A stretch of DNA of 64,000 nucleotides from Chelatococcus sp. YT9 (GCF_018398315.1 NZ_JAHBRW010000003.1:1-64000), one strand, 5' to 3'. Shown: positions 9,367 through 41,734, counted from the first letter of the stretch. A program made the numbers and translations. The notes: a model not told the origin generated them from the letters alone.

Positions 9367-10116
9367 TCATTGTCGGTACGTCCATGCGCGGCCGGGCCGC
9401 AAATCCGTCGTGCGCCAGAGATCTGCCATCATCATCGCTTGTCGCCAGGCGACCGCGAACACGTCGAGTACTGGCGCGCCGGCAACGCTGGAAAGGCCCG
9501 CACCGGTGATAAGTCGGGCCAGTACCCCTTCGGCCGGGACGATTACGTCGGCACCCTTCGCGACAAGGCGTTCCGCAGTGGCGCGGAAATTGGCGACGAT
9601 GGCCTGCGGATTGCCGTAGGCGCTCGCCAGTTCGAACTCGTCCACCGGCGGCTCCAGCGACGCGACTTCGATGACGCGGCTTGCAAGCGCATGTTTTTCG
9701 ACAGAGCTCCGCGCCATCCACTGCACGTTTGGCGCATTGGAAATCAGCCCCGCAAAGCGTCCCAACGAGCATGAGGTGGTCAGCGCCGCCTCGGTCATCG
9801 AAACGACCGGAATATCGACGGCGGTGCGCGCCTCGCGCAGAAAAGGTTCGCTGAACGAGCCGATGACGAAGGCATCGAAGCCCTGGCGCTCGGCCTCGAC
9901 GGCCAGATCGACGATTTGGGACAGCGCGCGGTGATAGGTCGCGGAATTACCAAGGGCTTCGGTCGGCGATTTTCCGCCATACGTCCCGGATGCGAGGCCG
10001 TTGACCGTCACGGTTACATCCATCGGCAAGACGTTTGCGGCATGCTGACTAATGGCCGCCCGATAGGCGGAGATATGGTCGAGTTCGTTGACTGACTGAT
10101 GCCAGATGCGTGTCAT
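9367..10116 (-). CDS. Asp/Glu/hydantoin racemase-family protein lacking both catalytic Cys
   Basis: 249-residue member of the Asp/Glu/hydantoin racemase superfamily, two Rossmann-like halves. In true racemases each half supplies a catalytic cysteine. Here the first site reads IGSFSEP (near residue 88) and the second VPAEGVLA (near 190), so neither position carries Cys; the only Cys, in TTSCSLG near 118, is elsewhere. The protein is therefore unlikely to be a two-base cysteine racemase, and may be a decarboxylase- or isomerase-like relative. It is the last gene of the long minus-strand cluster and overlaps the MmgE/PrpD gene by four bases (ATGA). Confidence 0.75.
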   Translation of the reverse strand: MTRIWHQSVNELDHISAYRAAISQHAANVLPMDVTVTVNGLASGTYGGKSPTEALGNSATYHRALSQIVDLAVEAERQGFDAFVIGSFSEPFLREARTAVDIPVVSMTEAALTTSCSLGRFAGLISNAPNVQWMARSSVEKHALASRVIEVASLEPPVDEFELASAYGNPQAIVANFRATAERLVAKGADVIVPAEGVLARLITGAGLSSVAGAPVLDVFAVAWRQAMMMADLWRTTDLRPGRAWTYRQ

Positions 10117-11495
10117 GCAGTGTCCCTTTTGAGAGCCGGCGCGGTCGACAGGTCCAGGTCGCGCAGTGAGGCCAGCGTGGTGAGATCACGCAGTTGCGCC
10201 CATAGACGAGGGGCTGCATCCGCTCCCAGTGCCAGTGTCACGCAGGCGGTGAATTTTTCCATGAGTTCCGCATCGCTCAACGGCCTCTGCCAGCTACCCC
10301 GCGCATGGCTGACGGGTGGGCTGGACACGGTGTCGCCCGTGACCGTGGTCACCGCGACCTGGTCGAATGGCGCAAAAGTCTCGTCCCCCGCCATGCGTTC
10401 GTCGGTCGTCGTGATCGACACTTTTTCGAACTGCGACTGGACGTCGGCACGCTGGACGAAGGCGTCCGTCAGTTGATCCAGCCCGACCATCCGTGCCACC
10501 AGCGCCGAGGCCATGGCAAACTCCATGCTGAACTTTGCCTCCAGCCCGGTCCGCGGGCGGGCATTGCGCAACATGCCGTGCTGTGTGGAGCCGGTTCTAA
10601 CCTGGATAAGGGCGACCTGATCCGGCGTCAGTGCCCGATCTTCGACGAGGCCCAGCATGGCATCGATGGATCGGTGGGTGGCATAACAGGTCGGGTATCG
10701 CTTGATGTTGACGCCGTTGCGCTCCAGCCGCCAGGGGCGGCCTGCATCGAGCGGCTGATGGAGCAGGGGCGCGCCGGAAGGCGAGTGGGCCTTCAGAAAC
10801 CCGGACCGATGCTCGATCGTGTCAGGCGAGGCGGTAAAGCCGTCGCGGGCCAGCCGAGCCGACATGATGCCGGACTGTGCGGCGCGACCGACATGCAGCG
10901 ATTTCGTCATGCTGCCAAAATTCGAGACAAGGCCCGATGCCAGCGATGCCGCGAGCGCCAGGGCGTGCGTGGTCTGCTCCGCATCGAGCCGATAGAGCCG
11001 GGAGGCCGCAGCGGCGGCGGCGATCGTGCCCATCACCGCTGTCGGGTGAAAGCCTCTGTCGTGCAACTGGCCGGTTTCGAGCGCCTGCAACTGGGCCCAG
11101 ACTTCGTAGCCGGCGGCATAGGCGGCAAGCGCCTCTCGCCCGCTTGCCCCTTCGGTCTGTCCCACGGCGAGAATGGCCGGGGTCAGCGCCGCGCTCGGAT
11201 GCCCGGACAAGGCGACGTCGTCGTAGTCGAGGACATGGGCGGCGGTGCCGTTGACGAGCGCCGCATCCGCTGCCGAAAGCCTGCCGCCCGTCACCGCCTC
11301 GGTGGCAAAGTTGTTGCCCGTCGCCGCGGCCACGGTCGCGGCGACCAGTTTCGGCGCCGGTTCTCCGGCGCCGGCAAGCATCGTGCCGATACAGTCCAGC
11401 ATGCCGATATTGGCCGCTTCCAGTGCCAGTGCCGGAATCTCCTCGAAGCGGAGCCGGGAGACGAACTGGCCAAGCCCGCGTGTAACCTCGGTCAT
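10113..11495 (-). CDS. MmgE/PrpD family protein (copy 1)
   Basis: 460-residue MmgE/PrpD-fold protein; characterised members include 2-methylcitrate dehydratase, cis-aconitate decarboxylase and iminodisuccinate epimerase. Family hallmarks are the alpha-helical N-terminal domain with NGTAAHVLDYDDVALSGHPS near residues 80-100, the GxMTKSLHVGRAAQ stretch near 200 and the conserved KRYPTCYATHRSIDAM segment near 265. These residues line the active site in structures. It is one of two copies in the operon; they differ widely in sequence, so they are not a recent duplication. It sits twelve bases after the acyl-CoA dehydrogenase. Substrate unknown, probably a small polycarboxylate or its CoA-free product. 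Confidence 0.88.
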   Translation of the reverse strand: MTEVTRGLGQFVSRLRFEEIPALALEAANIGMLDCIGTMLAGAGEPAPKLVAATVAAATGNNFATEAVTGGRLSAADAALVNGTAAHVLDYDDVALSGHPSAALTPAILAVGQTEGASGREALAAYAAGYEVWAQLQALETGQLHDRGFHPTAVMGTIAAAAAASRLYRLDAEQTTHALALAASLASGLVSNFGSMTKSLHVGRAAQSGIMSARLARDGFTASPDTIEHRSGFLKAHSPSGAPLLHQPLDAGRPWRLERNGVNIKRYPTCYATHRSIDAMLGLVEDRALTPDQVALIQVRTGSTQHGMLRNARPRTGLEAKFSMEFAMASALVARMVGLDQLTDAFVQRADVQSQFEKVSITTTDERMAGDETFAPFDQVAVTTVTGDTVSSPPVSHARGSWQRPLSDAELMEKFTACVTLALGADAAPRLWAQLRDLTTLASLRDLDLSTAPALKRDTA

Positions 11496-11507
11496 GAATT
11501 GCCCAGC

Positions 11508-12701
11508 TCAATAGGATCGCGGCAGGCCGAGCACATGCTGCGCCACATAGGCCAGCACCATGTTCGTGGATATCGGCGCCGTCTGGTAAAGGCGCACCTC
11601 ACGCCATTTGCGCTCGATGTCGTATTCCTGCGCGTAGCCGAATCCGCCGAAGGTCTGGAGGGTCGTATCGGCGGCCTTCCATGTGGCTTCCGACGCCAGC
11701 ATCTTGGCGATGTTTGCTTCCGGCCCGCAGGGCAGGTGCGCATCGAACATGGCGGCGGCCTTGCGGCACATCATGTCGGCCGCCTCCAGTTCCGCATGGG
11801 CGCGGGCGAGCGGGAACTGGATGCCCTGATTCTGGCCGATCGGCTTTCCGAACACGACGCGCTGTCCTGCATATTCGACGCCGCGCTTCAGGAGCCAGCG
11901 ACCATCGCCGACGCATTCGGATGCGACCAGGATCCGCTCCGCGTTCATGCCATCGAGGATATAGCGGAAGCCCTTGCCCTCCTCGCCGATCAGGTTCTCG
12001 GCAGGTACGACGAGATCATTGATGAAGACCTCGGTGGTGTTGTGGTTGATCAGCGCCTTGATCGGCCGGATGTCGATGCCTTTGCCGCATGCTTCGCGCA
12101 GGTCGACGAGGAAGACCGACAGCCCGTCCGTGCGTTTCGTGACCTCCTCGGCTGGTGTGGTGCGCGCAAGAAGCAGCATCAGGTCGGAATGCAGCGCCCG
12201 CGATGTCCAGACCTTCTGGCCGTTGATGATGTAGTGGTCGCCATTGCGCACGGCGCGCGTCTTCAACTGGGTCGTGTCGGAGCCGGTGTTCGGTTCCGTG
12301 ACGCCGAATGCCTGCAGGCGAAGCCGCCCGGCGGCGATCTCCGGCAGATATTTGCGCTTCTGCGCAGGGCTGCCGTGGCGCAGAACAGTGCCCATGATAT
12401 ACATCTGAGCATGGGCGGGGCTGGCGACGCAGCCGCTGGCATTGATCTCCTCGAGGATGACGGCTGCCGCCCGCAGCGGCAGGCCCGACCCGCCATAGTC
12501 CTCCGGCACGAGTGCGGCCAGATAGCCCGCCTCCGTCAATGCGGTGACGAACGCGGTCGGGTAGCCGCGTTCGTCGTCCAGATTGCGCCAGTAGGCGCCG
12601 TCGAACTTCTCGCAGACTTTGCGCACGCCTTCGCGCAGTTCGGGATAGTCCTCGCCTATGGCGATCGAAACGCTCTCCGGCGCCGGGCTGGAATCATGCA
12701 T
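11508..12701 (-). CDS. Acyl-CoA dehydrogenase
   Basis: 397-residue acyl-CoA dehydrogenase. The order is standard: helical N domain, FAD-binding FGVTEPNTGSDTTQLKTRA near 135, beta domain with VWTSRA, and C domain ending in LYQTAPISTNM...HVLGLPRSY. The residue where MCAD has its Glu base is not Glu; the likely base is the Glu in GMNAERI near 245, as in isovaleryl-CoA-type enzymes. The ATG at 12701 lies inside the end of the HMG-CoA-lyase-like gene (eight-base overlap), so translation is coupled. Electrons would go to ETF. The acyl substrate is probably short or branched but cannot be fixed. Confidence 0.93.
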   Translation of the reverse strand: MHDSSPAPESVSIAIGEDYPELREGVRKVCEKFDGAYWRNLDDERGYPTAFVTALTEAGYLAALVPEDYGGSGLPLRAAAVILEEINASGCVASPAHAQMYIMGTVLRHGSPAQKRKYLPEIAAGRLRLQAFGVTEPNTGSDTTQLKTRAVRNGDHYIINGQKVWTSRALHSDLMLLLARTTPAEEVTKRTDGLSVFLVDLREACGKGIDIRPIKALINHNTTEVFINDLVVPAENLIGEEGKGFRYILDGMNAERILVASECVGDGRWLLKRGVEYAGQRVVFGKPIGQNQGIQFPLARAHAELEAADMMCRKAAAMFDAHLPCGPEANIAKMLASEATWKAADTTLQTFGGFGYAQEYDIERKWREVRLYQTAPISTNMVLAYVAQHVLGLPRSY

Positions 12702-13632
12702 GCGCTTGGCTCGTCTTTCCCGAATAGGTTTTCGGAAGGCCGGCGCGGGCGATGGCACCGGAAAAGCGTTCGCCTGGCAGCCAGTCCTCGACCCGCCCGC
12801 GCAGGGCGATGAGCTTTCCGATATCGATACCGGTGTCGAAGCCCAGCTGTTCGAGAAGAAACGCTGTGTCCTCGGTATTGATGTTGCCGGTCGCGCCGGG
12901 CGCGAATGGGCAGCCGCCCAGCCCGCCGAGCGAGGAATCGAACGCCCGGACGCCGACTTCGAGGGCTGCCGTAACATTGGCGAGGCCGAGACCGCGCGTA
13001 TCGTGGAAATGACAGGAGACCGGCAGCGGTGAAACGGCTGCGATGACTTGGGCCATGATGCGGCGCACGGCACCGGGATCGCCATAGCCGACCGTATCGG
13101 CAATCACGATCTCGTCGGCGCCCATCTGCGCATAGCGCGCCGCGATCTCCACGACCCGCTTTTCCGCCACCGCGCCCGAAATGGAACAGCCGAAAGCCGT
13201 CGCCACACACCCTCCGAGGTCGATCCGGGGGCCGTCTCGCAGATTGCGCTCGGCCACGATCCGCTCGAACTCGGCGAGCGATTCGTCGGTGCTGCGGCGT
13301 ACATTCGCCTGATTATGCGCCTCGCTGGCCGAGAGCACGAAATTGACGAGCGGCAGGCCGCTTGCGAAGGCGTCGCGGGCGCCGCGCAAATTCGGAACCA
13401 GCGCCGCCGCTCGGAACGTGCCGATGGCCAACGCACCACGGGCCACCTCGCCGGCATCGGCAAATTGCGGCACGACCTTGGCCGGAACGAAGGAGGTGAC
13501 CTCGATCTCCCGCATTCCGGCCTCGGCAGCCAATCTGCACCAGTCGAGCTTTCGCCCGGTGGACAGGATGTCATGGGCCATCTGCAGGCCGTCGCGCGGG
13601 CCGACTTCGCGTATATGGACCTGGTCACGCAT
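12694..13632 (-). CDS. Hydroxymethylglutaryl-CoA lyase-like enzyme
   Basis: 312-residue DRE-TIM metallolyase of the HMG-CoA lyase type, which cleaves 3-hydroxy-3-methylglutaryl-CoA (or a related 3-hydroxy-3-alkyl acyl-CoA) to acetyl-CoA and an acid. Seen motifs: VGPRDGLQ at residues 9-16 with the catalytic Arg-Asp, GCSISG near 150, metal-binding CHFHDTRG near 208, and the loop GLGGCPFAPGATGN near 240 with the catalytic Cys. Length matches the family. It overlaps both neighbours by eight bases. With the adjacent acyl-CoA dehydrogenase it forms a leucine-degradation-like step, but no methylcrotonyl-CoA carboxylase is present, so a different branched acyl-CoA is likely. Confidence 0.9.
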   Translation of the reverse strand: MRDQVHIREVGPRDGLQMAHDILSTGRKLDWCRLAAEAGMREIEVTSFVPAKVVPQFADAGEVARGALAIGTFRAAALVPNLRGARDAFASGLPLVNFVLSASEAHNQANVRRSTDESLAEFERIVAERNLRDGPRIDLGGCVATAFGCSISGAVAEKRVVEIAARYAQMGADEIVIADTVGYGDPGAVRRIMAQVIAAVSPLPVSCHFHDTRGLGLANVTAALEVGVRAFDSSLGGLGGCPFAPGATGNINTEDTAFLLEQLGFDTGIDIGKLIALRGRVEDWLPGERFSGAIARAGLPKTYSGKTSQAHA

Positions 13633-15028
13633 GGGCTCGTCGTCCTTCCGTCTGCAATGCCGCGCGGATCGCATCGAATATGTCGGCAACCGGCATCGGT
13701 CTCTCGCCCGCCGCAGCGCCCAGTATCCGGGCCGCGAGATCTCCGGCCGCATCGGCTTGCAGGCCCGCACGCGAAAACCGCTCCCTGAACACCTCCACGG
13801 CGCGCGCTTCGTTCTGGAAGAGCAGTGTCTCGGGCGCCTCTTTCGCATCCGCCGTGACAATGGACCCGTCCTTGAGCGTGACGGTGACGGTCGAATCGAG
13901 TGCGCCGCGTTCGTCGTCGGGCACGATGGTCGTCTTCGCGACGAGCGCGTTCAGAAGCGGATCCGAGCGGCCGGTCGTGCCCATCTCGTAGGTCAGGTCG
14001 CCATGTATCAGCATGGCGGCGACGGCAAAGGCCGTGCTGGCCTGCGTCTGCACGATCCGTTCGAACGGCCCCTTGAAGGCCGTGCCGGGATACTCGCTGT
14101 AGGGGCGCCAGAGGGTGACACGGATCGAGCAGATGCGCGCGGGCTCGATGCCATGCGCGCGTGCGGCACGCGCCGCCATCACGGCCGGCATGTTGTCGCC
14201 CAGCGTCGCGAAGGGTTTTGCCATGATTTGCAGCATGATCGACGGGTCGGGATCGGTCTTCCAGGCGTCCGGCGGAGCGTCCATGCCGGCAAGCGCCATG
14301 AGGAAGCCACGCCGGCCGCAGAGCGCATCCGGCGCGCCGACCACGCCCTGTTGCGCCATCAGCGCGGCGAGCAACCCGCCCTGCGCCGCGCGACCGTTCT
14401 GGATGCGCCATTCGTCCGAGCCGCAGCGCACCGGCTCCAGCGTGCCGCCGGTGGTGGAGGCGGCAATCGCGACAGCGGATGCCGCCTCGTCAGCGCCGAG
14501 ACCCAGCGCGGCAGCGCCTGCCGCCGCCGCGCCGATCGTCCCGAATGTCGGGCTGGTGCGCATGCCGCGCGCAATCAATCGGCGCGAGACGATCTCGTCC
14601 ACACCGAGCCAGTTCATCACCGCATAGCCGGCGACCAGTGCCCGAAGCGCCTGCGCGACCGAGCCGCCCGACGCTTCCACGAGCGCGATGGCGACCGGGG
14701 GCACCAGCGAGCCGGGATGCGACCACGAGACGTGATCGGTATCGTCCTGGAAATGCGCGTGCACCGCGATGCCGTTCGCGAACGCCGCATCGGCTGGGCT
14801 GGCACGGGTTCCGTCCGCCCAGATGCTGGAAACGCCCTGGGACGTGGGCAAGATGACCCGGCGTGCGGCTTTCGCCGTCGTTTCCTCGCGCGCGACGACC
14901 GCAAGTCCAAGCGCGTCGATGAGGCAGATAGCAGCCTTGGTGGCGACATCGTTTCGAAGCGGCCGGGTCGCGGCCTGCGCCAGATACTGGCCGAGCCTTT
15001 GTGTGGACGTGAAGGTGCCGGTCGTCAT
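13625..15028 (-). CDS. MmgE/PrpD family protein (copy 2)
   Basis: 467-residue MmgE/PrpD-fold protein with the hallmark NGIAVHAHFQDDTDHVSWSHPG segment near residue 85 (copy 1 has the simpler DYDD version) and RIQNGRAAQGG near 220. It lacks the KRYPTCYATH-type segment of copy 1; the corresponding part reads IMAKPFATLGDN. The ATG at 15028 overlaps the livF stop in TGATG, preferred over the GTG three bases earlier. The two MmgE/PrpD genes bracket the HMG-CoA-lyase-like and acyl-CoA dehydrogenase genes. Likely lyase or isomerase acting on a hydroxy polycarboxylate; substrate unknown. Confidence 0.87.
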   Translation of the reverse strand: MTTGTFTSTQRLGQYLAQAATRPLRNDVATKAAICLIDALGLAVVAREETTAKAARRVILPTSQGVSSIWADGTRASPADAAFANGIAVHAHFQDDTDHVSWSHPGSLVPPVAIALVEASGGSVAQALRALVAGYAVMNWLGVDEIVSRRLIARGMRTSPTFGTIGAAAAGAAALGLGADEAASAVAIAASTTGGTLEPVRCGSDEWRIQNGRAAQGGLLAALMAQQGVVGAPDALCGRRGFLMALAGMDAPPDAWKTDPDPSIMLQIMAKPFATLGDNMPAVMAARAARAHGIEPARICSIRVTLWRPYSEYPGTAFKGPFERIVQTQASTAFAVAAMLIHGDLTYEMGTTGRSDPLLNALVAKTTIVPDDERGALDSTVTVTLKDGSIVTADAKEAPETLLFQNEARAVEVFRERFSRAGLQADAAGDLAARILGAAAGERPMPVADIFDAIRAALQTEGRRAHA

Positions 15029-15720
15029 CACAGATATTCCTCGGAAAGCGCGACGTCCCGGATCTCCGCAACGGTGCCCTGGCGCCGCACGGCCCCGCCT
15101 CGCATGACGTAGCCGCGTGTCGCGAGCTTCAGCGCCGGACGCGCCATTTGTTCAGTCATCAGGATGGTGATGCCGCGCGCCTGCATCTGCCGGATGGCAT
15201 CGCTGATGCGGGCGATCCAGACCGGTGCGAGCCCGAGAAACGGCTCATCGAGCAGGAGGAGCTTTGGGAACGAACTCATGGCGCGGGCGAAGGCGACGAT
15301 CTGCTGCTGGCCGCCGGATAATTGTCCGGCCGGTTGCCCGGCGCGCTCCTTCAGCATGGGGAAGACTCCGGAGAGCCATTCCCAGGCTTCGGCCTGCCGG
15401 GCGCGGCCGCGGCCGATGGCGCCGGCCATGACATTGTCGTAGACCGACATGCTGGCGAAAACCCGACGGCCTTCGGGCGAATAGCCGATGCCAGCCAGAG
15501 CCCGCCGGTCGCACGAAAGCCTGCCGATATCCTGCCCGTCGAAGCGGATGCTGCCTTTCTGCGCGTCGGTGAGCCCGATCACCGCGTTGATGAGGCTGGA
15601 CTTGCCGGCTCCGTTGGCGCCCACGAGAAGCACGGTCTCGCCCTTGGCCACCTCGATCGAGACGCGCCGTAGCGCGACGATGCCGCCATAGCGCACGTCG
15701 AGACTGTCGACGGACAGCAT
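15028..15720 (-). CDS. Liv-type ABC transporter ATP-binding protein (system A, LivF)
   Basis: 230-residue LivF-type ATPase of a branched-chain-amino-acid-like (HAAT) importer. Walker A is GANGAGKSS near 36, the signature is LSGGQQQIVAFARAM near 134 and Walker B is LLLLDEPFLGLAP near 154. It pairs with the LivG-type subunit encoded directly upstream; the genes share one base at TGATG. System A is the first of three Liv transporters in the window. HAAT systems also import aromatic acids, dicarboxylates and amides, so the ligand here is more likely the substrate of the surrounding catabolic genes than leucine. Confidence 0.93.
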   Translation of the reverse strand: MLSVDSLDVRYGGIVALRRVSIEVAKGETVLLVGANGAGKSSLINAVIGLTDAQKGSIRFDGQDIGRLSCDRRALAGIGYSPEGRRVFASMSVYDNVMAGAIGRGRARQAEAWEWLSGVFPMLKERAGQPAGQLSGGQQQIVAFARAMSSFPKLLLLDEPFLGLAPVWIARISDAIRQMQARGITILMTEQMARPALKLATRGYVMRGGAVRRQGTVAEIRDVALSEEYL

Positions 15721-17461: not shown

Positions 17462-17464
17462 GGG

Positions 17465-28906: not shown

Positions 28907-28920
28907 AGGAAACGTTTCCA
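28907..28920 (+). promoter_or_regulatory. Second LacI-type operator upstream of the second transporter
   Basis: AGGAAACGTTTCCA contains the 12-base palindrome GGAAACGTTTCC and ends 34 bases before the binding-protein start. Its centre is 130 bases from the centre of the upstream copy, so a looped, two-site repression complex is plausible. Confidence 0.78.
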
Positions 28921-30178: not shown

Positions 30179-30192
30179 GGCCGTTCTTCATG

Positions 30193-30226
30193 CGCGACGC
30201 GGCCTCGCATGATGTGCGGCGTCGCG
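30193..30226 (+). other. Hairpin between binding-protein and permease genes
   Basis: Outer arms CGCGACGC (30193-30200) and GCGTCGCG (30219-30226) plus inner CGCA/TGCG (30206-30209, 30215-30218) form a 12-bp stem with a five-base bulge. Hairpins in this position often stabilise the binding-protein message and lower permease expression. Confidence 0.55.
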
Positions 30227-30275
30227 TTCACCGAGCGAAAGCTGCCGGGGCGCTGCCCGGTCTGGCAGGGAACCC

Positions 30276-35225: not shown

Positions 35226-36398
35226 ATGACGATCAAGGGCACGGCCTGCATCGTAGGTGCCTATGAGCACCCGACGCGAAAGGCTCCCCATCTCACGCTG
35301 GCGCAGATCCACGCCGAATCCACGCTCGGCGCTCTGCGTGACGCCGGCCTCGGCAAAGCGGATATCGACGGCTATTTCTGCGACAGCGAGGCTCCCGGCC
35401 TCGGCGCCAACTCGATGGCGGATTACATGGGGCTGAAGCTTCGCCATGTGGACACGACCGAAACCGGCGGGTCGTCCTATCTCGCCCATGTCAGCCACGC
35501 CGCGCAGGCGATTGCGGCGGGCAAGTGCAATGTCGCGCTGATCACGCTCGCCGGCCGGCCGCGCTTCGAAGGGAGTTCGGTCTCGTCGCAGTCACCCTTC
35601 CTCAGTCCGACCATACCGGACGTGGATTTCGAGGTCCCGTACGGCGCGGCGCTCGTCAATCTCTACGCGCTGTGCGCCGCCCGGCACATGCACGAATACG
35701 GCACGACCAGCGAGCAGCTCGCCTGGATCAAGGTCGCGGCCTCTCATCACGCACAGCACAATCCGCATGCCATGCTGAAGACCGTGGTCACGGTCGAGGA
35801 TGTCGTGAACTCGCCGATGATCGCCGACCCCCTGCATCGGCTCGATTGCTGCGTGGTCAGCGATGGCGGCGGCGCGCTGATCGTCGCCCGCCCGGAAATT
35901 GCCAGAAGCCTGAAAAGCCCGCTCGTTTCGGTCATGGGCGCGGGCGAGGCGATCAAAACGCAGAATGGCGGCCGCATCGACGTGACCTATACGGCTGCGG
36001 CGGCCTCGGGCCGCGCCGCCTTCGCGGAAGCTGGCGTTACGCCGTCCGACATCGACTACGCCTCGATCTATGACAGCTTCACCATAACGGTCCTGATGCA
36101 GCTCGAAGATCTGGGCTTCTGCGAGAAGGGCAAGGGTGGCCGCTTCGTTGCCGATGGCAACCTGATCTCGGGCGTCGGCAAGCTGCCCTTCAACACCGAT
36201 GGCGGCGGACTCTGCAACAACCATCCCGGCAATCGCGGCGGCATCACCAAGGTCATCGAGGCCGTGCGGCAATTGCGCGGCGAGGCGCATCCTGCCGTGC
36301 AGGTTAAGGACTGCCGCCTGGCGCTCGCGCAGGGGATCGGCGGGCCGCTTTCGACCCGCCATGCCAGCGCAACCCTCGTTCTGGAGCGCCAGTCATGA
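35226..36398 (+). CDS. Thiolase-fold protein without catalytic cysteines (SCP-x/Ltp2-like)
   Basis: 390-residue thiolase-superfamily protein closest in style to SCP-x/Ltp2. In thiolases the nucleophile Cys sits in a motif like NNNCATG; here the aligned segment is DTTETGG, giving Glu79. The C-terminal acid/base Cys region (CIGGG) reads AQGIGGP, again without Cys, while the His motif is kept as GGGLCNNHPGNRGG near 320. This pattern is that of Ltp2-type acyl-CoA retro-aldolases, which work with a DUF35 partner, and a DUF35 gene follows with a four-base overlap. I infer a C-C lyase acting on a 3-hydroxyacyl-CoA, not a thiolytic enzyme. Confidence 0.85.
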   Translation: MTIKGTACIVGAYEHPTRKAPHLTLAQIHAESTLGALRDAGLGKADIDGYFCDSEAPGLGANSMADYMGLKLRHVDTTETGGSSYLAHVSHAAQAIAAGKCNVALITLAGRPRFEGSSVSSQSPFLSPTIPDVDFEVPYGAALVNLYALCAARHMHEYGTTSEQLAWIKVAASHHAQHNPHAMLKTVVTVEDVVNSPMIADPLHRLDCCVVSDGGGALIVARPEIARSLKSPLVSVMGAGEAIKTQNGGRIDVTYTAAAASGRAAFAEAGVTPSDIDYASIYDSFTITVLMQLEDLGFCEKGKGGRFVADGNLISGVGKLPFNTDGGGLCNNHPGNRGGITKVIEAVRQLRGEAHPAVQVKDCRLALAQGIGGPLSTRHASATLVLERQS

Positions 36399-36790
36399 CC
36401 GAATCCGTTCCGGCCTTCGCCAATCCCGAAACTGCGACCTACTGGGAAGCGGCATCCAAGGGGAAGCTTCTGCTCAAATCCTGCAACGCCTGTGGCGCGG
36501 TGCATTTCTACCCGCGCAACATCTGTCCGCATTGCTTTTCCGACGAGACCTCCTGGGTGGAAAGTCGCGAGCGTGGGAAGATCTATACGCTCAGCACCAT
36601 GCGGCGCGCCGGCGCCCCTTACGTGATCGCCTATGTGTCGCTGGAGGAGGGCGTGGCGATGCTCACCAATATCCTCTGCGACGATCCCGCCGACCTCGCC
36701 ATCGGCGACGCCGTCGACGTGGAATTCATCGAGCGGGACGGCCGGTCCGTCCCCGTTTTCAGGAAACGCGAAGCAGGAGCCTCGGAATGA
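36395..36790 (+). CDS. DUF35/Zn-ribbon OB-fold protein
   Basis: 131-residue DUF35 protein. Residues 27-48 hold the rubredoxin-like zinc ribbon, two CxxC pairs (CNAC and CPHC) separated by 12 residues, followed by an OB-fold with GKIYTLSTMRR near 65 and EEGVAMLTNI near 88. DUF35 proteins bind thiolase-fold partners: in steroid degradation they are needed by the Ltp2 aldolase, in archaea by HMG-CoA synthase. The gene overlaps both its neighbours by four bases, which makes a complex with the preceding protein likely. Confidence 0.92.
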   Translation: MTESVPAFANPETATYWEAASKGKLLLKSCNACGAVHFYPRNICPHCFSDETSWVESRERGKIYTLSTMRRAGAPYVIAYVSLEEGVAMLTNILCDDPADLAIGDAVDVEFIERDGRSVPVFRKREAGASE

Positions 36791-37710
36791 CGATCCGGTT
36801 CGACGGACGGACAGCGCTGGTCACGGGCGCCGGAAACGGTCTGGGGCGGCACTATGCGCTGCTTCTGGCCAGCCTTGGCGCGAATGTCGTCGTCAACGAT
36901 CTCGGCACCGGGCTGGACGGCAGCACCAGCGGCGACAGCCCGGCAGACCGGGTGGTGGAGGAAATCCACGCGGCGGGCGGGCAGGCGGTCGCCAATGGCG
37001 ACAGCGTCACCGATCCGGCGGGCGCACGGCGCATGGTCGATCAGGCGGTCGCGGCGTTCGGCGGGCTGGATATTCTCGTATGCAATGCCGGCATTCTGCG
37101 CGACCGCTCGCTTCTGAAGATGACGGACGAGGATTTCCGCGCCGTCATGGACATCCACATGATGGGGAGTTTCTTCTGCGCGCGGGCGGCTGCGGCGGTC
37201 ATGGTCGAGAGAGGCTATGGTCGCATCGTTCTCACCACCTCGCCGTCCGGGCTTTACGGCAATTTCGGCCAGTCGAACTACGCGGCGGCCAAGATGGCGC
37301 TCGTCGGTTTTGCCAACGCGGTCAAGCTGGAGCTGGGCCGCAAGGGCGTCCTCATCAACTGCCTGGCGCCGTCGGCCACGACGCGCATGACCGAGGCCTT
37401 GCTGGATAGCGAGACCGCCGAGGCGATGAAGCCGGAATATGTGGCGCCCATGGTCGCCTATCTGTGCAGCGAGGCCTGCAGTGAGAGCGGCGGCATCTTC
37501 ACCGCCGGCGCGCGCCATTTCGCGATCAATCGCATGGTGCATGGCAGGGGCGTGACCTTCGGCGAGGGCACGCCTGACGTCGACGACATCGCAACCCGCA
37601 TCGATGAGATCGTCTCGCTGGACGGAGCGCAGGCCTTTCCGTCCATCGGCGAGCAGACGGCACGTCTGATGGACGCCTATCGCGTCGCGAAGACCGGCAT
37701 GCGGCAGTGA
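36787..37710 (+). CDS. Short-chain dehydrogenase of the MFE-2 (17beta-HSD4) type
   Basis: 307-residue SDR resembling the N-terminal domain of peroxisomal multifunctional enzyme 2. Cofactor motif TGAGNGLGRHYALLL at residues 13-27, NDLGTGLDGS near 38 with the longer insert typical of MFE-2, NAG near 100, catalytic Ser in TTSPSGLYG near 152 and YAAAK near 165. It should oxidise a 3-hydroxyacyl-CoA to the 3-oxo form. Gene overlaps of four bases link it to the DUF35 gene. The C-terminus is about 40 residues longer than a minimal SDR, as in the MFE-2 group. Confidence 0.9.
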   Translation: MTIRFDGRTALVTGAGNGLGRHYALLLASLGANVVVNDLGTGLDGSTSGDSPADRVVEEIHAAGGQAVANGDSVTDPAGARRMVDQAVAAFGGLDILVCNAGILRDRSLLKMTDEDFRAVMDIHMMGSFFCARAAAAVMVERGYGRIVLTTSPSGLYGNFGQSNYAAAKMALVGFANAVKLELGRKGVLINCLAPSATTRMTEALLDSETAEAMKPEYVAPMVAYLCSEACSESGGIFTAGARHFAINRMVHGRGVTFGEGTPDVDDIATRIDEIVSLDGAQAFPSIGEQTARLMDAYRVAKTGMRQ

Positions 37711-37736
37711 CGACGGCGGCACAAGGAGCAGGAAAC

Positions 37737-38591
37737 GTGCTGACCTACAAGCACCTGAGAGAATACCGCCCGCCCGAGGCGCGCGCCACGTACGGCACGC
37801 GGGAGGTTATCCTCTATGCGCTGGCCGTGGGCGCCGGCGCCGATCTTCCGGCCGGAGAGGCGCTTCCCTTCGTTTACGAAAAAGGGCTGAAACCCCTGCC
37901 TTCATTCTACAGTATCCTGTGCTGGCCGACCAATGCCTGGCTGCCGCAGCTCGGCGTCGACCTGAAGCGGCTCCTGCACGGCTCCGAACGGCTGGAAATC
38001 CTCCAGCCGCTGGCGCCGGAGGGATCGATCGTCGTCCGCTATCATATCGGGACGGTCGCCGACCGCGGCGCGGGCAAGGGCCTGATCGTCGATGTCGTCG
38101 CCGAAGTGTTTTCCGCGAGTGACAACAGTCTTCTGGCGCGTGCCACGAGCTCGCTGTTTTGCATGGGGGATGGCGGGTTGGACGGCGCGCCCAGGGCGGA
38201 ACGCGTCGAGCCGGAGCCTCTGCCCGACCGCGGGCCGGATGGCATCCTGGAGGTCGAGACGCGGCCCGACCAGGCCGCTCTCTATCGGCTGTGCGGCGAC
38301 GGCAATCCGATCCATATCGATCCGGATGCGGCCCGCGGATTGGGGCTCGAGAAGCCGCTTCTTCACGGCCTGTGCACGCTCGGCATGAGCGTTCACGCTC
38401 TTGCCCGGCAGGATGCCCGCGTCGCGGATGGCCTCGTCGCGGAGGTGGGTGCCCGCTTTTCGGCGCCGGTATATCCCGGCGAGCGGCTTCGCCTGGAGTT
38501 GTGGCGCGAAGAGGGGCGCATACGGTTCGTGACGAAAGTCGGCGCGGACAGAACCGTTCTCAAGGACGGTGTGCTTGGATTCAGGCGATAG
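37737..38591 (+). CDS. MaoC-like enoyl-CoA hydratase 2
   Basis: 284-residue double hot-dog protein like the hydratase-2 domain of MFE-2. The C-terminal half holds the catalytic motif YRLCGDGNPIHIDPDAA near residue 195 (consensus YRLSGDxNPLHxDP; the Asp and His are kept) and the second GLCTLGM element. The N-terminal half is the degenerate acyl-chain-binding hot dog. I use the GTG at 37737, which has AGGAG eight bases before it and matches the usual N-terminus (LTYKHLREYRPPE); a GTG at 37707 overlapping the preceding stop is the alternative. It would hydrate trans-2-enoyl-CoA to the (3R)-hydroxy product used by the neighbouring SDR. Confidence 0.9.
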   Translation: MLTYKHLREYRPPEARATYGTREVILYALAVGAGADLPAGEALPFVYEKGLKPLPSFYSILCWPTNAWLPQLGVDLKRLLHGSERLEILQPLAPEGSIVVRYHIGTVADRGAGKGLIVDVVAEVFSASDNSLLARATSSLFCMGDGGLDGAPRAERVEPEPLPDRGPDGILEVETRPDQAALYRLCGDGNPIHIDPDAARGLGLEKPLLHGLCTLGMSVHALARQDARVADGLVAEVGARFSAPVYPGERLRLELWREEGRIRFVTKVGADRTVLKDGVLGFRR

Positions 38592-38607: not shown

Positions 38608-40224
38608 ATGTTCGAGGCGAAGTACGACAATACGCAATGGAGCCTGCCGGTCGTGGTGGCCGCGCAGGCGAAAAGCCTAGGGGACAAGCCCTTTATCGTC
38701 AGCATCGGCGAAGGCGTGCTGAGCTACGCGCAGGCAAACGAGGATGCCCGACGCGTCGCGGACTATCTCAACGGTCTCGGTATCCAGCCGGGCGACCGGG
38801 TGATCGTCATGACCCCGAACAGCCTCGATTTCATCCGCATCTGGATTGGGCTGGGACGGCTCGGCGCCATCATGGTCGCTATGAATACCGGCCTCAGCGG
38901 CCCGATCCTCGAATCGCAGGTCCTGCGTTCGAAGGCCCGCTACGCCATCGTCGGCGGCCAGTGCATCGCGCCCCTGGCCGAGGTCCTTCATCAGGCACCC
39001 GATGTCGGGACGATCGTGGTGGTTGGCGCGGAAGCATTCCCCGGACATGAGGCCCGCCGTATCCTGCCCTTCGCAGGCTGGCGCGGCGCCGGGCTTTACG
39101 ACGGCCCCATGCCGCGGCCGCAGGACATTGCCTGCATCCTCTATACCTCCGGCACGACGGGGCCTTCGAAGGGCGTGCTCATGCCGCATGCCCATTGTTA
39201 CCTCTACGGGCTGGGCATGGCCGACAACACGCTGATGACGCCGGACGACGTGCTCTACGACGTGCTGCCGCTCTACCATGTCAACGGCCTGTTCATTCAG
39301 GTCTATGGAGGTCTGGTTTCCGGCGCGGCGGTCGTCATCCGGCCGAAATTCAGCGCCAGCGCCTGGCTGGACGACGTGATCTCCCATGGCGTGACACTGA
39401 CCGTGGTGGTGGGCGCCGTCATTCCCTTCGTGCTCAACCAGCCACCGAGCCCGAGGGACAGGCAGCACAAGCTGCGGCTCGTCATGCCCGGCCCCAATCT
39501 GACGGAGCATGAAAAGGTCTGGCGCGAGCGCTTCGGCGTGCCGGAAATCGTTTCCAGCTACGGCATGACGGAATGCAACATCCCGACCTACGAGAAGGTG
39601 GGCGACACCCGGTCCGGCTCCTGCGGCAAGGCATACGGACCCTATTTCGACGTGCGCATCGTGGATCCGGATACCGACCGCGAGATGCCGCGCAACAGCG
39701 TCGGCGAGATCGTCGTGCGCCCGAACGCGGCGAGCGGCTTCATGGCCGGCTATGACGGCATGCCGGAAAAGACGGTCGAGGCCACCCGCAATCTCTGGTT
39801 CCATACCGGCGATGCCGGGCGGATGGATGAGGACGGCTTCGTTTTCTTCATCGACCGCATCAAGGACCGTATCCGCAGGCGCGGCGAGAATGTGTCCTCC
39901 TACGAGGTGGAGGAAGCGCTTGAACGCCTGGACGCGATCAAGGAAGCCGCGGTCTTCGCCGTGCCCTCGGATCTCGACGACGGCGAGGACGAAATCATGG
40001 TCGCTGCCGTGCTGGTGGAAGGCCAGGCCATCGGGCCGCAGGACATCGCCCGCTTTGCCGAACAGGTCCTGCCGAAGTTCTGCCGCCCCCGCTACATCGA
40101 GATCGTCGACGCCCTTCCGCGCACCAAGACCGAGAAGGTGCAGCGCAATCTGCTGCGCGAGCGAGGCCTGACGGCCGGCGCCTTCGATGTGGCGCGGGCA
40201 GCCTTTGTCGGCGCCGGAAGCTGA
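38608..40224 (+). CDS. Acyl-CoA synthetase (AMP-dependent ligase)
   Basis: 538-residue ANL-superfamily ligase that activates a carboxylic acid to its CoA thioester with ATP. Motifs in order: P-loop YTSGTTGPSKGVL near 190, the A5 element SYGMTECN near 318, the FHTGDAGRMDEDGFVFFIDR stretch near 402 with the core Asp, and the hinge/A10 Lys in RTKTEKVQRN near 510. It starts with ATG at 38608 after a 16-base gap. As the only ligase in the plus arm, it probably primes the transported substrate for the dehydrogenase, hydratase, SDR and lyase encoded upstream. Confidence 0.94.
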   Translation: MFEAKYDNTQWSLPVVVAAQAKSLGDKPFIVSIGEGVLSYAQANEDARRVADYLNGLGIQPGDRVIVMTPNSLDFIRIWIGLGRLGAIMVAMNTGLSGPILESQVLRSKARYAIVGGQCIAPLAEVLHQAPDVGTIVVVGAEAFPGHEARRILPFAGWRGAGLYDGPMPRPQDIACILYTSGTTGPSKGVLMPHAHCYLYGLGMADNTLMTPDDVLYDVLPLYHVNGLFIQVYGGLVSGAAVVIRPKFSASAWLDDVISHGVTLTVVVGAVIPFVLNQPPSPRDRQHKLRLVMPGPNLTEHEKVWRERFGVPEIVSSYGMTECNIPTYEKVGDTRSGSCGKAYGPYFDVRIVDPDTDREMPRNSVGEIVVRPNAASGFMAGYDGMPEKTVEATRNLWFHTGDAGRMDEDGFVFFIDRIKDRIRRRGENVSSYEVEEALERLDAIKEAAVFAVPSDLDDGEDEIMVAAVLVEGQAIGPQDIARFAEQVLPKFCRPRYIEIVDALPRTKTEKVQRNLLRERGLTAGAFDVARAAFVGAGS

Positions 40225-40284: not shown

Positions 40285-41037
40285 ATGGATCTCCATCTGC
40301 AAGGGCTCCGGGCTCTCGTGACCGGCGCGAGTATCGGTATTGGCCGCGCCATCGCGTTGTCGCTTGCCGCCGAAGGCGTGGAGCTGGCGATCGTGGGCCG
40401 CCGCCCGAACCTGCTGGACGAGGTGGCGGAGGCCTGCCGTCAGGCCGGATCGCCGAAGGTCGGCACGATCGAGGCGGACATGATGGCGCCCGACGCACCG
40501 CAGACCGTCACGGCGCGCGCCATGGAGACGCATGGCGGCATCGACATCCTGGTCAACTGCATGGGTGCCAGCAAGACGATCGGCCTGGACGAAAGCGAGG
40601 AGGATTGGGAGGCGTCCATGACGCTGAACTGGCTACGCCACCGGCAGGTCGCCAAATACGTCCTGCCCGGAATGCAGCAGCGGCGCTGGGGCCGCATCCT
40701 GAACGTCACCGGTCCCAGCGAGGTCATGGGGCTCAATTCCGCCGGCGTCGCCAAGGTCGCGGTCCATGCTTGGGCGAAGGGCGTGTCGGACCTCGTGGCG
40801 AAGGACGGGATTACCGTCAACTGCATTGGTCCGGGCAAGATCCATTCGGAGCAGATGACGCGACTTTATGCGCCTGAACGCGAAAAGCAGTTCTCCGAGG
40901 ACCTCATTCCCATGGGGCGCTTCGGCGAGCCGGAAGAACTGGCCGACCTGGTGACGTTCCTGGCATCGCCGCGGGCGGGCTACATCACCGGCACGGTCAT
41001 TCCCGTCGATGGCGGCTTCAAGCGCTACATGTTCTGA
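40285..41037 (+). CDS. SDR-family protein lacking the catalytic Tyr
   Basis: 250-residue SDR. The cofactor motif TGASIGIGRAIAL (residues 13-25) and the C-terminal GTVIPVDGGF are normal, but at the active site, where YxxxK is expected, the sequence is NSAGVAKVAVHAWAKG: the Lys is kept and the Tyr position is Ala. The Ser is in NVTGPSE. I recall related proteins with the same loss, so this may be a conserved non-classical branch with altered chemistry (isomerase, binding protein or different acid). GGGAGGATG precedes the ATG. Its role in the pathway is open. Confidence 0.85.
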   Translation: MDLHLQGLRALVTGASIGIGRAIALSLAAEGVELAIVGRRPNLLDEVAEACRQAGSPKVGTIEADMMAPDAPQTVTARAMETHGGIDILVNCMGASKTIGLDESEEDWEASMTLNWLRHRQVAKYVLPGMQQRRWGRILNVTGPSEVMGLNSAGVAKVAVHAWAKGVSDLVAKDGITVNCIGPGKIHSEQMTRLYAPEREKQFSEDLIPMGRFGEPEELADLVTFLASPRAGYITGTVIPVDGGFKRYMF

Positions 41038-41062
41038 ACCGGCAGATCGTAAAGGGATATCG

Positions 41063-41734
41063 ATGATAAAGCTGATCTTCTGCTACCGCCGGAAGCCGGG
41101 CATGCCGGTCGAAGACTTCCAGGCTTACTGGAGTGACACCCATAGGCGGCTGGCCGCGAGAATTCCAGGCCTGCGCCACTACGAGCAAAACCATGTGAAG
41201 CCGTCAGCCTATGCCCGGACGGTCGCGCCGATTTTCGACGGCGTCGAGAAGTTCTGGGTGGATTCGGTCGAGGCGCTCCAGGCGATGCGCGCTGGCGCCG
41301 CTTTTGGCGCGGCGAGCGCCGACCTCGACATTTTCACCGACACCGCCGCGACGAAATCGATCGTCGCGCAGGAGGCCGTGATCAAGGACGGGCCGCGCTC
41401 CGACGGCATGCTGCGGCTGATCGAGTTTCTGACCCGCCGGCCGGGCATGGAGACCGCTGCCTTCCATGACCACTGGGAAAAGATCCACGGGCCACTGGTG
41501 GCAAAACAGCCGCAGATCCGGCGTTATGTGCAATCCCACACGCTGATGGAGGAATACGCCGAGCCGACATGGCCCGATTACGACGGCGTGACGGAGGCAT
41601 GGTTCGACGGCACGGACGCGATGCGCGAGGCGGTAGCCGCTCCTCTCTGGGCCGAGGTGTTACAGGACGAGGAGAATTTCGTGCCTAAGAACACGCCGTT
41701 CATCCTGTCCATCGACCGGACCGTAACGCTGTAG
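41063..41734 (+). CDS. Two-domain EthD-family protein
   Basis: 223-residue protein made of two tandem ferredoxin-like EthD units of about 105 residues: the first begins MIKLIFCYRRKPGMPVEDF with YWSDTHR near 27, the second MLRLIEFLTRRPGMETAAF with HWEKIHG near 138. EthD proteins accompany oxidative degradation pathways (ether and aromatic compounds) but most have no known chemistry; some dimers act as small lyases or monooxygenase partners. It is the last gene of the plus arm, 25 bases after the SDR. Confidence 0.87.
   Translation: MIKLIFCYRRKPGMPVEDFQAYWSDTHRRLAARIPGLRHYEQNHVKPSAYARTVAPIFDGVEKFWVDSVEALQAMRAGAAFGAASADLDIFTDTAATKSIVAQEAVIKDGPRSDGMLRLIEFLTRRPGMETAAFHDHWEKIHGPLVAKQPQIRRYVQSHTLMEEYAEPTWPDYDGVTEAWFDGTDAMREAVAAPLWAEVLQDEENFVPKNTPFILSIDRTVTL

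What the first reader, a model, noticed from the sequence alone, without database searches (positions are those of the whole stretch)
9367..41734. 32-kb bipartite catabolic supercluster with two complete Liv importers: candidate undescribed pathway
HyuAB, a class III CoA-transferase, enoyl-CoA hydratase, HMG-CoA-lyase-like enzyme, acyl-CoA dehydrogenase, two MmgE/PrpD proteins and a racemase-like protein share one regulator with an acylating aldehyde dehydrogenase, 4-hydroxy-2-oxoacid aldolase, acyl-CoA ligase, MFE-2-type SDR, hydratase 2, cysteine-free thiolase, DUF35 and EthD. I know no described pathway with this set. Two importers with different binding proteins under one regulator suggest uptake of a substrate and of a second related compound, or two linked pathways ending in pyruvate, acetyl-CoA and a short acyl-CoA. 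Substrate is inference only.
Basis: inference. Interest (0 to 1): 0.8.

Follow-up and report, generated by a model that had tools for sequence, protein, structure and literature searches.

The report
LacI-controlled two-armed catabolic regulon
A bacterium carries two divergent sets of degradation genes, each with its own importer, that seem to be tied together by one repressor and its private DNA switches; one set is a rare pathway that recurs in other bacteria and resembles itaconate breakdown, the other looks like a local add-on, and what they degrade is still unknown.

Summary
"One regulator" is well supported: the palindrome TGGAAACGTTTCCA (at most 1 mismatch) occurs only four times in the 6.74-Mb genome, all in this cluster: before hyuA, between lacI and mhpF, and twice before the second importer. 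Four of five related loci have the same or a similar palindrome before hyuA and a related LacI.

The left arm is a recurring cassette: HyuAB, class III CoA-transferase, crotonase, HMG-CoA lyase, in one relative also acyl-CoA dehydrogenase and MmgE/PrpD. Its enzyme roles parallel the characterised itaconate/methylsuccinate cluster. Transporters vary; one locus has a citryl-CoA-lyase equivalog for the lyase. The right arm as a set was not seen in the DNA read at those loci, nor around the 80 nearest thiolase relatives. Its thiolase-fold/DUF35 pair lacks the thiolase cysteine (YDSF in 81 of 81) and is probably a retro-aldolase.

Best reading: a branched-dicarboxylate pathway opened by an ATP-dependent HyuAB hydrolase, with a retro-aldol arm recruited to its repressor. 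All reactions and the substrate are inferred.

The parts
25401..26396 (-). LacI-family repressor (331 aa from MKDV; an upstream start near 26552 is also possible)
   Evidence: Pfam LacI and Peripla_BP; related LacI at the cassette in Variovorax RA8 (52%), G054 (49%), G211 (41%) and on a G1177 contig (40%)
25349..25362 (.). operator before hyuA (TAGAAACGTTTCCA)
26561..26574 (.). operator between lacI and mhpF (TGGAAACGTTTCCA); may also serve lacI itself
28777..28790 (.). operator before binding protein 2 (TGGAAACGTTTCCA)
28907..28920 (.). second operator before binding protein 2 (AGGAAACGTTTCCA)
23297..25333 (-). HyuA, ATP-dependent hydrolase/carboxylase family, subunit A
   Evidence: Hydantoinase_A; caprolactamase alpha 556 bits against acetophenone carboxylase gamma 329, all below cut-off
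21571..23295 (-). HyuB, subunit B
   Evidence: nearest solved chains N-methylhydantoinase (7hk5) and Hydantoinase (6yra), far above acetophenone carboxylase
20406..21569 (-). class III CoA-transferase, best NCBIfam model succinate-glutarate CoA-transferase, below cut-off
19616..20425 (-). crotonase-type enoyl-CoA hydratase
18347..19525 (-). binding protein 1 of Liv importer 1
15028..18331 (-). Liv importer 1: LivH 17465-18331, LivM 16454-17461, LivG 15720-16457, LivF 15028-15720
13625..15028 (-). MmgE/PrpD-1, divergent: lacks a His and a Lys context that MmgE/PrpD-2 keeps
12694..13632 (-). HMG-CoA lyase family, over its NCBIfam subfamily cut-off
   Evidence: 70% identical in G211
11508..12701 (-). 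acyl-CoA dehydrogenase 1
   Evidence: 79% identical in G211
10113..11495 (-). MmgE/PrpD-2, nearest solved chain iminodisuccinate epimerase
   Evidence: 55% in G211
9367..10116 (-). Asp/Glu/hydantoin racemase family
   Evidence: 49% in Variovorax RA8, 39% in G211
6574..9183 (-). possible extension of the left arm: MBL-fold hydrolase 8359-9183, ETF beta 7518-8264, ETF alpha 6574-7518
   Evidence: operon continuity is inference
26654..27571 (+). acetylating acetaldehyde dehydrogenase (mhpF type)
   Evidence: TIGR03215 469 bits, cut-off 282
27585..28607 (+). 4-hydroxy-2-oxovalerate aldolase (mhpE type)
   Evidence: TIGR03217 558 bits, cut-off 286
28955..33962 (+). Liv importer 2: binding protein 28955-30178, LivH 30276-31208, LivM 31205-32470, LivG 32467-33243, LivF 33240-33962
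34042..35184 (+). acyl-CoA dehydrogenase 2
35226..36398 (+). thiolase-fold protein without nucleophile Cys, YDSF motif; likely retro-aldolase
   Evidence: PRK08142; related solved chains 4u4e, 9myr, 7yvy, 6ok1; motif count
36395..36790 (+). DUF35 partner (zf-ChsH2 + OB_ChsH2_C)
   Evidence: near the thiolase in 78 of 80 named loci
36787..37710 (+). MFE-2-type SDR
37707..38591 (+). hydratase 2 (MFE-2 N-terminal + MaoC)
38608..40224 (+). AMP-forming acyl-CoA ligase
40285..41037 (+). SDR 2
41063..41734 (+). two-domain EthD protein
41960..45499 (+). pyruvate carboxylase, same strand; membership in the regulon unproven
   Evidence: TIGR01235 1906 bits, cut-off 1114

Best explanation
The region is one LacI-repressed regulon with two parts. 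(1) Left arm, a sporadically distributed cassette: the first importer brings in a carboxylate; HyuAB, an ATP-dependent cyclic-amide/imide-type hydrolase, opens it to a branched dicarboxylate; MmgE/PrpD-2 (and perhaps the racemase) adjusts its stereochemistry; the class III CoA-transferase makes the CoA ester; acyl-CoA dehydrogenase 1, perhaps with the neighbouring ETF, desaturates it; the crotonase adds water to give a tertiary 3-hydroxyacyl-CoA; the HMG-CoA-lyase-type enzyme cleaves this to acetyl-CoA and an oxo acid. (2) Right arm, recruited in this lineage by operators before mhpF and before importer 2: a second, probably larger precursor is imported, activated by the CoA ligase, desaturated, hydrated by the MaoC protein and cut by the cysteine-free thiolase-fold/DUF35 retro-aldolase; mhpE/mhpF turn released small pieces into pyruvate and acyl-CoA. 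SHOWN here by sequence: the genes, the operators, the recurrence of the left cassette, and that the right arm as a set is not in the DNA read at the other cassettes. INFERRED: repressor binding, every reaction, the order of steps, the ring-opening role of HyuAB, and that the right arm feeds the left.
For: Operators: 4 sites with at most 1 mismatch in 6.74 Mb, all here, reversed control 0. Same 14-mer, at most 1 mismatch: G054 2 sites in the genome (before hyuA; before an MFS gene); Variovorax RA8 plasmid record 3 sites (two between lacI and hyuA, one before a TTT binding protein); controls 0. Related 12-mer TGAAACGTTTCA, exact: G211 1 site in the genome, 56 bases before hyuA; G1177 3 sites, two upstream of hyuA (243 and 975 bases) and one on a contig with LacI, TRAP genes and a CoA-ligase-like gene; controls 0. 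Cassette identities to the window: HyuA 52-62% and HyuB 63-69% in all five other loci; CoAT 48-53% and crotonase 50-67% in four of the five (not on the G1177 contigs read); HMGL 50, 53 and 70% in three; ACAD1 79% and PrpD-2 55% in G211. Shinella has no HMGL hit but a citryl-CoA lyase equivalog (394 bits, cut-off 261) in the same closely spaced run of genes. The four CoATs scanned (window, Variovorax, Shinella, G054) all score best with the succinate-glutarate CoA-transferase model, 270-318 bits. HyuB scores 260 and 234 bits with N-methylhydantoinase and Hydantoinase 6yra, 101 with acetophenone carboxylase. Transporters at the other cassettes: TTT (Variovorax), MFS of the TIGR00893 type, below cut-off (G054), TRAP (G211; G1177), another Liv (Shinella). 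Precedent: CoA-transferase, hydratase, lyase, acyl-CoA dehydrogenase and MmgE/PrpD isomerase together degrade itaconate/methylsuccinate (PMC12290011: abstract, Results parts 1-2 of 3, whole Discussion). Right arm: Tyr of the YD motif kept and Gly at the nucleophile Cys place in 81 of 81 (window plus 80), as told for Sal (PMC12329534, passages).
Against: No substrate, activity, binding or expression data. HyuAB lies below every functional cut-off, so hydrolase versus carboxylase is open; the CoAT is far below the cut-off of its best model (291 of 750), the crotonase below that of PRK07657 (262 of 363). The other cassettes were found by HyuA, HyuB or LacI, so the constancy of HyuAB is partly by construction; whether CoAT-ECH-HMGL-ACAD runs exist without HyuAB was not tested. 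Shinella's replicon has no operator and no LacI hit beside its cassette. In G211 the CoAT-ECH-HMGL-ACAD-PrpD run is separated from hyuA by a CoA-ligase-like gene and shows no operator of its own in the stretch read. The motif was read from the window's own gaps, so one site is spent on defining it. MmgE/PrpD-1 is unexplained. No amidase, carbamoylase or aminotransferase was recognised in the left arm, though a cyclic amide would leave an amine or amide. That the right arm feeds the left rests only on shared control.
Confidence: 0.5

Rival explanations
1. HyuAB is a biotin-independent, ATP-dependent carboxylase (acetone/acetophenone type). The left arm would carboxylate a beta-methyl enone or related compound, then CoAT, hydratase and HMG-CoA lyase would finish it, as the biotin carboxylase, methylglutaconyl-CoA hydratase and HMG-CoA lyase do in leucine breakdown.
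For: HyuA also matches acetophenone carboxylase gamma over residues 10-498; carboxylase-hydratase-lyase is the known logic for beta-methyl substrates (established knowledge); no amide-processing enzyme was recognised in the arm.
Against: Both subunits score much higher with hydrolase than with carboxylase models and chains; no gene resembling a further carboxylase subunit was recognised; MmgE/PrpD and racemase have no clear place in this scheme.
Confidence: 0.2
2. Two unrelated pathways that merely lie back to back; LacI controls only the left arm.
For: The left cassette occurs without the right arm as a set elsewhere; the lacI gene is upstream of hyuA on the same strand in the window, in Variovorax RA8 and in G054; the site at 26561 could serve lacI itself.
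Against: A perfect and a near-perfect operator lie before importer 2, and a perfect one between lacI and mhpF; apart from the hyuA site there is no other in the genome.
Confidence: 0.1
3. An ordinary itaconate/methylsuccinate or leucine-type pathway with accessory genes; nothing new in chemistry.
For: Same set of enzyme roles as the itaconate/methylsuccinate cluster (PMC12290011); the HMGL is over its subfamily cut-off; the crotonase scores best with PRK07657 and solved chain 3kqf.
Against: HyuAB goes with CoAT and crotonase in five of the six loci known here (window included); hydratase and lyase appear to be of other families than in that cluster (its families are recalled; a word search of the paper for MaoC, CitE, CaiB and HMG gave 0); HyuAB, racemase and LacI were not named as members of the five-gene cluster in the parts read.
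Confidence: 0.15
4. The right arm is a side-chain-shortening module for a steroid- or terpenoid-like acid (bile-acid Shy/Sal logic), the main pathway of the region, and the left arm handles its residue.
For: CoA ligase, ACAD, MaoC, thiolase-fold aldolase with DUF35, SDR and mhpEF have counterparts in steroid degradation (established knowledge); sequence relation to solved chains 9myr and 6ok1.
Against: No ring-degrading oxygenase recognised among the genes examined; Ser in place of the Cys/His of Sal/Ltp2; thiolase-fold/DUF35 pairs of this type occur in many unlike contexts.
Confidence: 0.1

Closest known systems
Itaconate/methylsuccinate degradation cluster of Cupriavidus necator and Pseudomonas aeruginosa (PMC12290011)
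   Same: CoA-transferase, hydratase, lyase, acyl-CoA dehydrogenase and MmgE/PrpD protein encoded together for a branched dicarboxylate
   Different: Here with HyuAB, racemase, LacI and operators; crotonase and HMG-CoA-lyase-type enzymes (the families of Ich and Ccl are recalled as MaoC and CitE, not read); a second, divergent MmgE/PrpD; orthology to the described enzymes not tested
ATP-dependent lactam/hydantoin hydrolases (caprolactamase CapAB, N-methylhydantoinase)
   Same: Two-part HyuA/HyuB architecture; best NCBIfam models and nearest solved relatives
   Different: Far below the caprolactamase equivalog cut-offs (556 and 293 of 1000 bits); linked to CoA-ester breakdown
Distal leucine pathway (methylglutaconyl-CoA hydratase, HMG-CoA lyase)
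   Same: Crotonase hydratase plus HMG-CoA lyase over its subfamily cut-off
   Different: No biotin acyl-CoA carboxylase recognised beside them; a CoA-transferase and HyuAB instead
Steroid side-chain aldolases Sal and Ltp2 with DUF35 partners (PMC12329534)
   Same: Thiolase fold, Tyr of the YD motif, Gly for the nucleophile Cys, DUF35 gene beside it
   Different: Motif YDSF (81 of 81) instead of YDCY or YDHF; separate MaoC protein without a fused DUF35; not linked here to recognised steroid genes
4-hydroxy-2-oxovalerate aldolase/acetylating acetaldehyde dehydrogenase pair (MhpE/MhpF)
   Same: Both over the equivalog cut-offs
   Different: No hydratase (MhpD) or ring-cleavage gene recognised beside them

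Membership tests
Itaconate/methylsuccinate degradation cluster | CoA-transferase, hydratase, lyase, ACAD and MmgE/PrpD encoded together | tested here: met
   Window left arm and G211 by similarity: all five roles by family
Itaconate/methylsuccinate degradation cluster | Enzymes orthologous to Ict, Ich, Ccl, Mcd, Msi | not tested
   No sequences of those enzymes were compared; hydratase and lyase appear to be other families (recalled)
Itaconate/methylsuccinate degradation cluster | Activity on itaconate or methylsuccinate | not testable with these tools
   Needs enzyme assay
Caprolactamase (CapAB equivalog) | NCBIfam equivalog cut-offs, 1000 bits each | tested here: not met
   556 and 293 bits
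ATP-dependent cyclic amide hydrolases (broad HyuAB hydrolase branch) | Closer to hydrolases than to carboxylases | tested here: met
   HyuB 260/234 bits against 101; HyuA 556 against 329; by score only, no tree built
Acetophenone carboxylase | NCBIfam equivalog cut-offs | tested here: not met
   HyuA 329 of 1500 (gamma) and 222 of 1250 (alpha); HyuB 115 of 1500 (delta)
HMG-CoA lyase | NCBIfam subfamily PRK05692 cut-off 246 | tested here: met
   290 bits
Sal/Ltp2 thiolase-fold aldolase | Catalytic Tyr, no nucleophile Cys, DUF35 partner | tested here: met
   81 of 81 aligned sequences (window and the 80 kept of 584 relatives); DUF35 in 78 of 80 loci
Sal/Ltp2 thiolase-fold aldolase | Second catalytic residue (Cys of YDCY, or the extra Tyr of Ltp2) | tested here: inconclusive
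   Ser instead of Cys or His in 81 of 81, so the Sal form is not met; the extra Tyr of Ltp2 was not mapped
Single LacI regulon | Operators at the starts of both arms and nowhere else in the genome | tested here: met
   (at most 1 mismatch)
Single LacI regulon | Repressor binding and co-induction | not testable with these tools
   Needs gel shift, transcriptomics

The most novel reading that the evidence does not exclude
A so far undescribed, horizontally mobile pathway in which an ATP-dependent HyuAB ring-opening enzyme feeds a branched dicarboxylate into CoA-transferase, hydratase and interchangeable lyases (HMG-CoA-lyase type or citryl-CoA-lyase type), a HyuAB-fed counterpart of the itaconate route; in this genome its repressor has also captured a second pathway built on a new YDSF class of thiolase-fold aldolases, so that two importers and two pathways answer one signal.
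Probability: 0.4. Interest if true: 0.65.

Novelty: new variant of a known kind. Interest (0 to 1): 0.5.

Why it matters
If right, it gives the large and mostly uncharacterised HyuAB family (18 Hydantoinase_A matches in this genome alone) a concrete metabolic setting, adds a branched-dicarboxylate pathway beside the itaconate one, and offers an easily assayed repressor-operator pair, shared in form across several bacteria, whose inducer would name the substrate. It also points to an unassigned YDSF clade of thiolase-fold/DUF35 proteins, found in many Proteobacteria and some other bacteria, that should not work as ordinary thiolases.

Tried and rejected
At a loose threshold (E 1e-10, 24% identity, 60% coverage) DUF35 is the only regular neighbour (78 of 80); next are CoAT-family (21), SDR 1-family (19) and crotonase-family genes (17), mostly at low identity; CoA ligase and ACAD2 families 11 each, MaoC and ACAD1 10 each, HyuB family 5 (31-32%); LacI, HyuA, HMGL, MmgE/PrpD-1, racemase, mhpF, mhpE, EthD and both binding proteins 0. 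Flanks were at most 10 kb and many contigs shorter. MaoC as a marker: 5 of 289 class genomes at 1e-60, the four others 38-41% identical; 158 plasmid records at 1e-30, the 25 listed at most 41%; one of these, a Sulfitobacter plasmid, has an unlike gene set. MmgE/PrpD-1 as a marker: 1 of 289 class genomes (the own) at 1e-70, no plasmid at 1e-40. LacI as a marker: 12 of 199 family genomes at 1e-60, the own included; the other 11 are 36-49% identical and only the best, G054, was followed. HyuB: 1 of 398 in the phylum sample at 1e-170, 2 of 397 in the family sample at 1e-140, 3 of 219 in the order sample at 1e-120, own genome counted each time; the samples overlap. HyuA in plasmids: 649 records at 1e-100; of the 15 listed only two stand out, at 62 and 55%, the next at 42%. 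A Rhizobium gallicum locus found with SDR 1 showed no cassette. Single distant family matches at the other cassettes (CoA ligase 34% in G054, ACAD2 37% in G211, SDR 2 31% in Shinella) were not taken as a right arm.

Isophorone carboxylase as a precedent: 3 papers listed, none relevant by title and abstract start. Paper searches for hydantoinase together with HMG-CoA lyase, 3-methylglutaconyl-CoA or itaconate returned 0; they cover open-licence PMC papers only. 'Variovorax sp. RA8' gave 5 papers, none opened. The motif YDSF does not occur in the 5 papers listed of 9. Structure prediction and fold search were not used; no phylogenetic tree was built. Solved-structure searches for the binding proteins gave no ligand.

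Considered and dropped without test: biotin, camphor, abscisic acid and haem-derived maleimides as substrates, and 2,6-dihydroxy-4-methylpyridine or citrazinate-type imides (chemically neat, no gene evidence).

Full report
OBSERVATION. All gene families named in the finding are present on the stated strands. On the left, on the same strand as the left arm, lie an MBL-fold hydrolase, ETF beta and ETF alpha (6574-9183), then a resolvase-type recombinase (3342-4484). On the right pyruvate carboxylase (41960-45499) follows the EthD gene on the same strand. The two Liv importers are complete and not recent copies of each other. The window is the start of contig C3, of 275,901 bases.

ONE REGULATOR. 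A search for palindromes in the intergenic gaps gave TGGAAACGTTTCCA. In the window it occurs four times with at most two mismatches, against 0.15 expected from shuffles. In the whole genome of 6.74 Mb it occurs four times with at most one mismatch, all in this cluster, and the reversed control has none: 25349-25362 just upstream of the HyuA start, 26561-26574 between lacI and mhpF, and 28777-28790 and 28907-28920 before binding protein 2. A TTGACA lies just upstream of the operator at 28777 (sequence), but the promoter scan found no site that meets its rule.

The same palindrome marks the left cassette elsewhere. The G054 genome has two sites, before hyuA and before an MFS gene; the Variovorax RA8 plasmid record has three, two between lacI and hyuA and one before a TTT binding protein. 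A near relative, TGAAACGTTTCA, occurs once in the G211 genome, before hyuA, and three times in G1177, twice upstream of hyuA and once on a small contig beside a CoA-ligase-like gene, with LacI and TRAP genes. The Shinella replicon has no site, and no LacI was found beside its cassette. So the operator belongs to the left cassette, and in the window the right arm carries it too.

THE LEFT CASSETTE. They were found by LacI, HyuA or HyuB, so HyuAB is present in them partly by construction. Identity to the window in this order (Variovorax, Shinella, G054, G211, G1177): HyuA 62, 55, 62, 53, 52%; HyuB 67, 63, 69, 63, 63%. CoAT (52, 48, 52, 51%) and crotonase (62, 55, 67, 62%) are found in the first four; in G1177 they are not on the contigs read, which are broken. 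HMGL is found in Variovorax (53%), G054 (50%) and G211 (70%). G211 has a run CoAT-ECH-HMGL-ACAD1-PrpD2 with 51, 50, 70, 79 and 55% identity, and beside hyuAB another ECH (62%), racemase (39%) and LacI (41%). Shinella has no HMGL hit; the same closely spaced run of genes encodes a citryl-CoA lyase equivalog (394 bits, cut-off 261), an aldehyde dehydrogenase and a 4-hydroxybutyrate dehydrogenase (543 bits, cut-off 500). Transporter types vary: TTT (Variovorax), MFS with best model TIGR00893, below its cut-off (G054), TRAP (G211, and G1177), a distantly related Liv whose binding protein gives no match to the window's over 60 bits (Shinella), and Liv 1 in the window. TTT, TRAP and this MFS type usually import organic anions (established knowledge), which suggests an anionic substrate. 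The cassette is rare: HyuB relatives in 2 of 397 family genomes at 1e-140, 3 of 219 order genomes at 1e-120 and 1 of 398 phylum genomes at 1e-170, the own genome counted each time; the three congeners listed have none. With a recombinase nearby this fits horizontal spread (inference).

MECHANISM, LEFT ARM. HyuAB scores nearer to hydrolases than to carboxylases but below all functional cut-offs. The four CoATs scanned (G211's was not) score best with the succinate-glutarate CoA-transferase model; among solved chains the best is an unassigned CAIB/BAIF protein, 4ed9, and succinate-hydroxymethylglutarate CoA-transferase is among the seven listed. The crotonase keeps both Glu contexts and the HMGL the recalled active-site motifs (read by eye); the HMGL is over its subfamily cut-off. 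MmgE/PrpD-2 is nearest to iminodisuccinate epimerase. PMC12290011 reports that the MmgE/PrpD protein of the itaconate cluster is a methylsuccinate isomerase, that the cluster's acyl-CoA dehydrogenase acts on methylsuccinyl-CoA, and that characterised MmgE/PrpD substrates share a 1,4-dicarboxylate backbone (abstract, Results parts 1-2 of 3 and whole Discussion read). The left arm therefore reads as the same logic with other enzymes: isomerase, CoA-transferase, dehydrogenase, hydratase, lyase. HyuAB in front suggests that the dicarboxylate is released from a cyclic amide- or imide-type precursor. MmgE/PrpD-1 lacks a His and a Lys context that MmgE/PrpD-2 keeps (alignment; residue roles inferred from motif position), and its role is unknown.

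MECHANISM, RIGHT ARM. The thiolase-fold protein is related to chains 4u4e, 9myr, 7yvy and 6ok1. I take 9myr for CtSal and 6ok1 for Ltp2 from the motif in the alignment (9myr), the entry names and recall. At the place of the thiolase nucleophile it has Gly, and it has the motif YDSF, in 81 of 81 sequences (window and the 80 loci kept), where Sal has YDCY and Ltp2 YDHF (PMC12329534, passages). It should not be a normal thiolase; a retro-aldol cleavage with the DUF35 partner is likeliest. CoA ligase, acyl-CoA dehydrogenase 2, MaoC hydratase and SDR would supply its substrate; mhpE/mhpF (over their equivalog cut-offs) would make pyruvate and acyl-CoA from released fragments. DUF35 is the only regular neighbour in 80 named loci, other families being present in at most 21 of 80 and mostly at low identity, so the right arm as a whole appears local to this genome, within the limits of a capped scan that may leave out near-identical genomes. 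A second copy of the thiolase/DUF35 pair, 69% and 47% identical, lies on contig C2 near a CoA-ligase match (26%) and a Liv importer.

HOW THE ARMS FIT. Shared control is shown by sequence only. Because other bacteria have the cassette without the right arm as a set, with their own importers, the simplest reading is that importer 1 takes up the cassette substrate itself and importer 2 a precursor or companion that the right arm converts; this order is inference. Pyruvate carboxylase next to the right arm would suit two pathways that end in pyruvate and acetyl-CoA, but it has no operator of its own.

VERDICT. A tightly defined regulon by sequence; left arm a recurring, apparently undescribed variant of branched-dicarboxylate catabolism; right arm a seemingly lineage-specific partner with an uncharacterised aldolase class; substrate open. 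'Undescribed' rests on paper searches in an open-licence library and on my own knowledge.

Noticed in passing
window 45806-64000: A further minus-strand catabolic cluster at lower GC follows pyruvate carboxylase: zinc alcohol dehydrogenase, FadB-like protein, APH-type phosphotransferase, acyl-CoA dehydrogenases, a Liv-type permease (only some of its ORFs were scanned).
   Followed up: no
window 3342-4484: Serine recombinase (resolvase family) beside the left arm, near the start of contig C3; fits a mobile origin.
   Followed up: no
genome G000: 18 Hydantoinase_A matches over the family cut-off in one genome, seemingly a large set.
   Followed up: no
L138 (own genome, C2:1205000-1220000): Second thiolase/DUF35 pair of the same family with CoA-ligase, partial crotonase and acyl-CoA dehydrogenase matches and a Liv importer (its own YDSF motif was not checked).
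   Followed up: partly
L023, L024, L036, L041, L046: Acyl-CoA dehydrogenases 62-64% identical to the left-arm ACAD1 lie near thiolase relatives of the right arm in other genomes, a possible functional bridge between the arms.
   Followed up: partly
L143 7738-8613; L125 10725-11603; window 8359-9183: MBL-fold hydrolase genes lie near the cassette in G211 (read by eye) and the window, with no similarity to each other at 1e-8; a stretch 26% similar to the G211 protein follows the HMGL in G054.
   Followed up: partly
window 13625-15028: MmgE/PrpD-1 has lost two conserved residue contexts and has no relative at 1e-70 in 288 other class genomes.
   Followed up: partly
window 40285-41037: SDR 2 seems to lack the usual catalytic Tyr of the YxxxK motif (read by eye).
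   Followed up: no
L142 7428-8909: YcaO cyclodehydratase gene and a methyltransferase gene near hyuAB in G1177.
   Followed up: no
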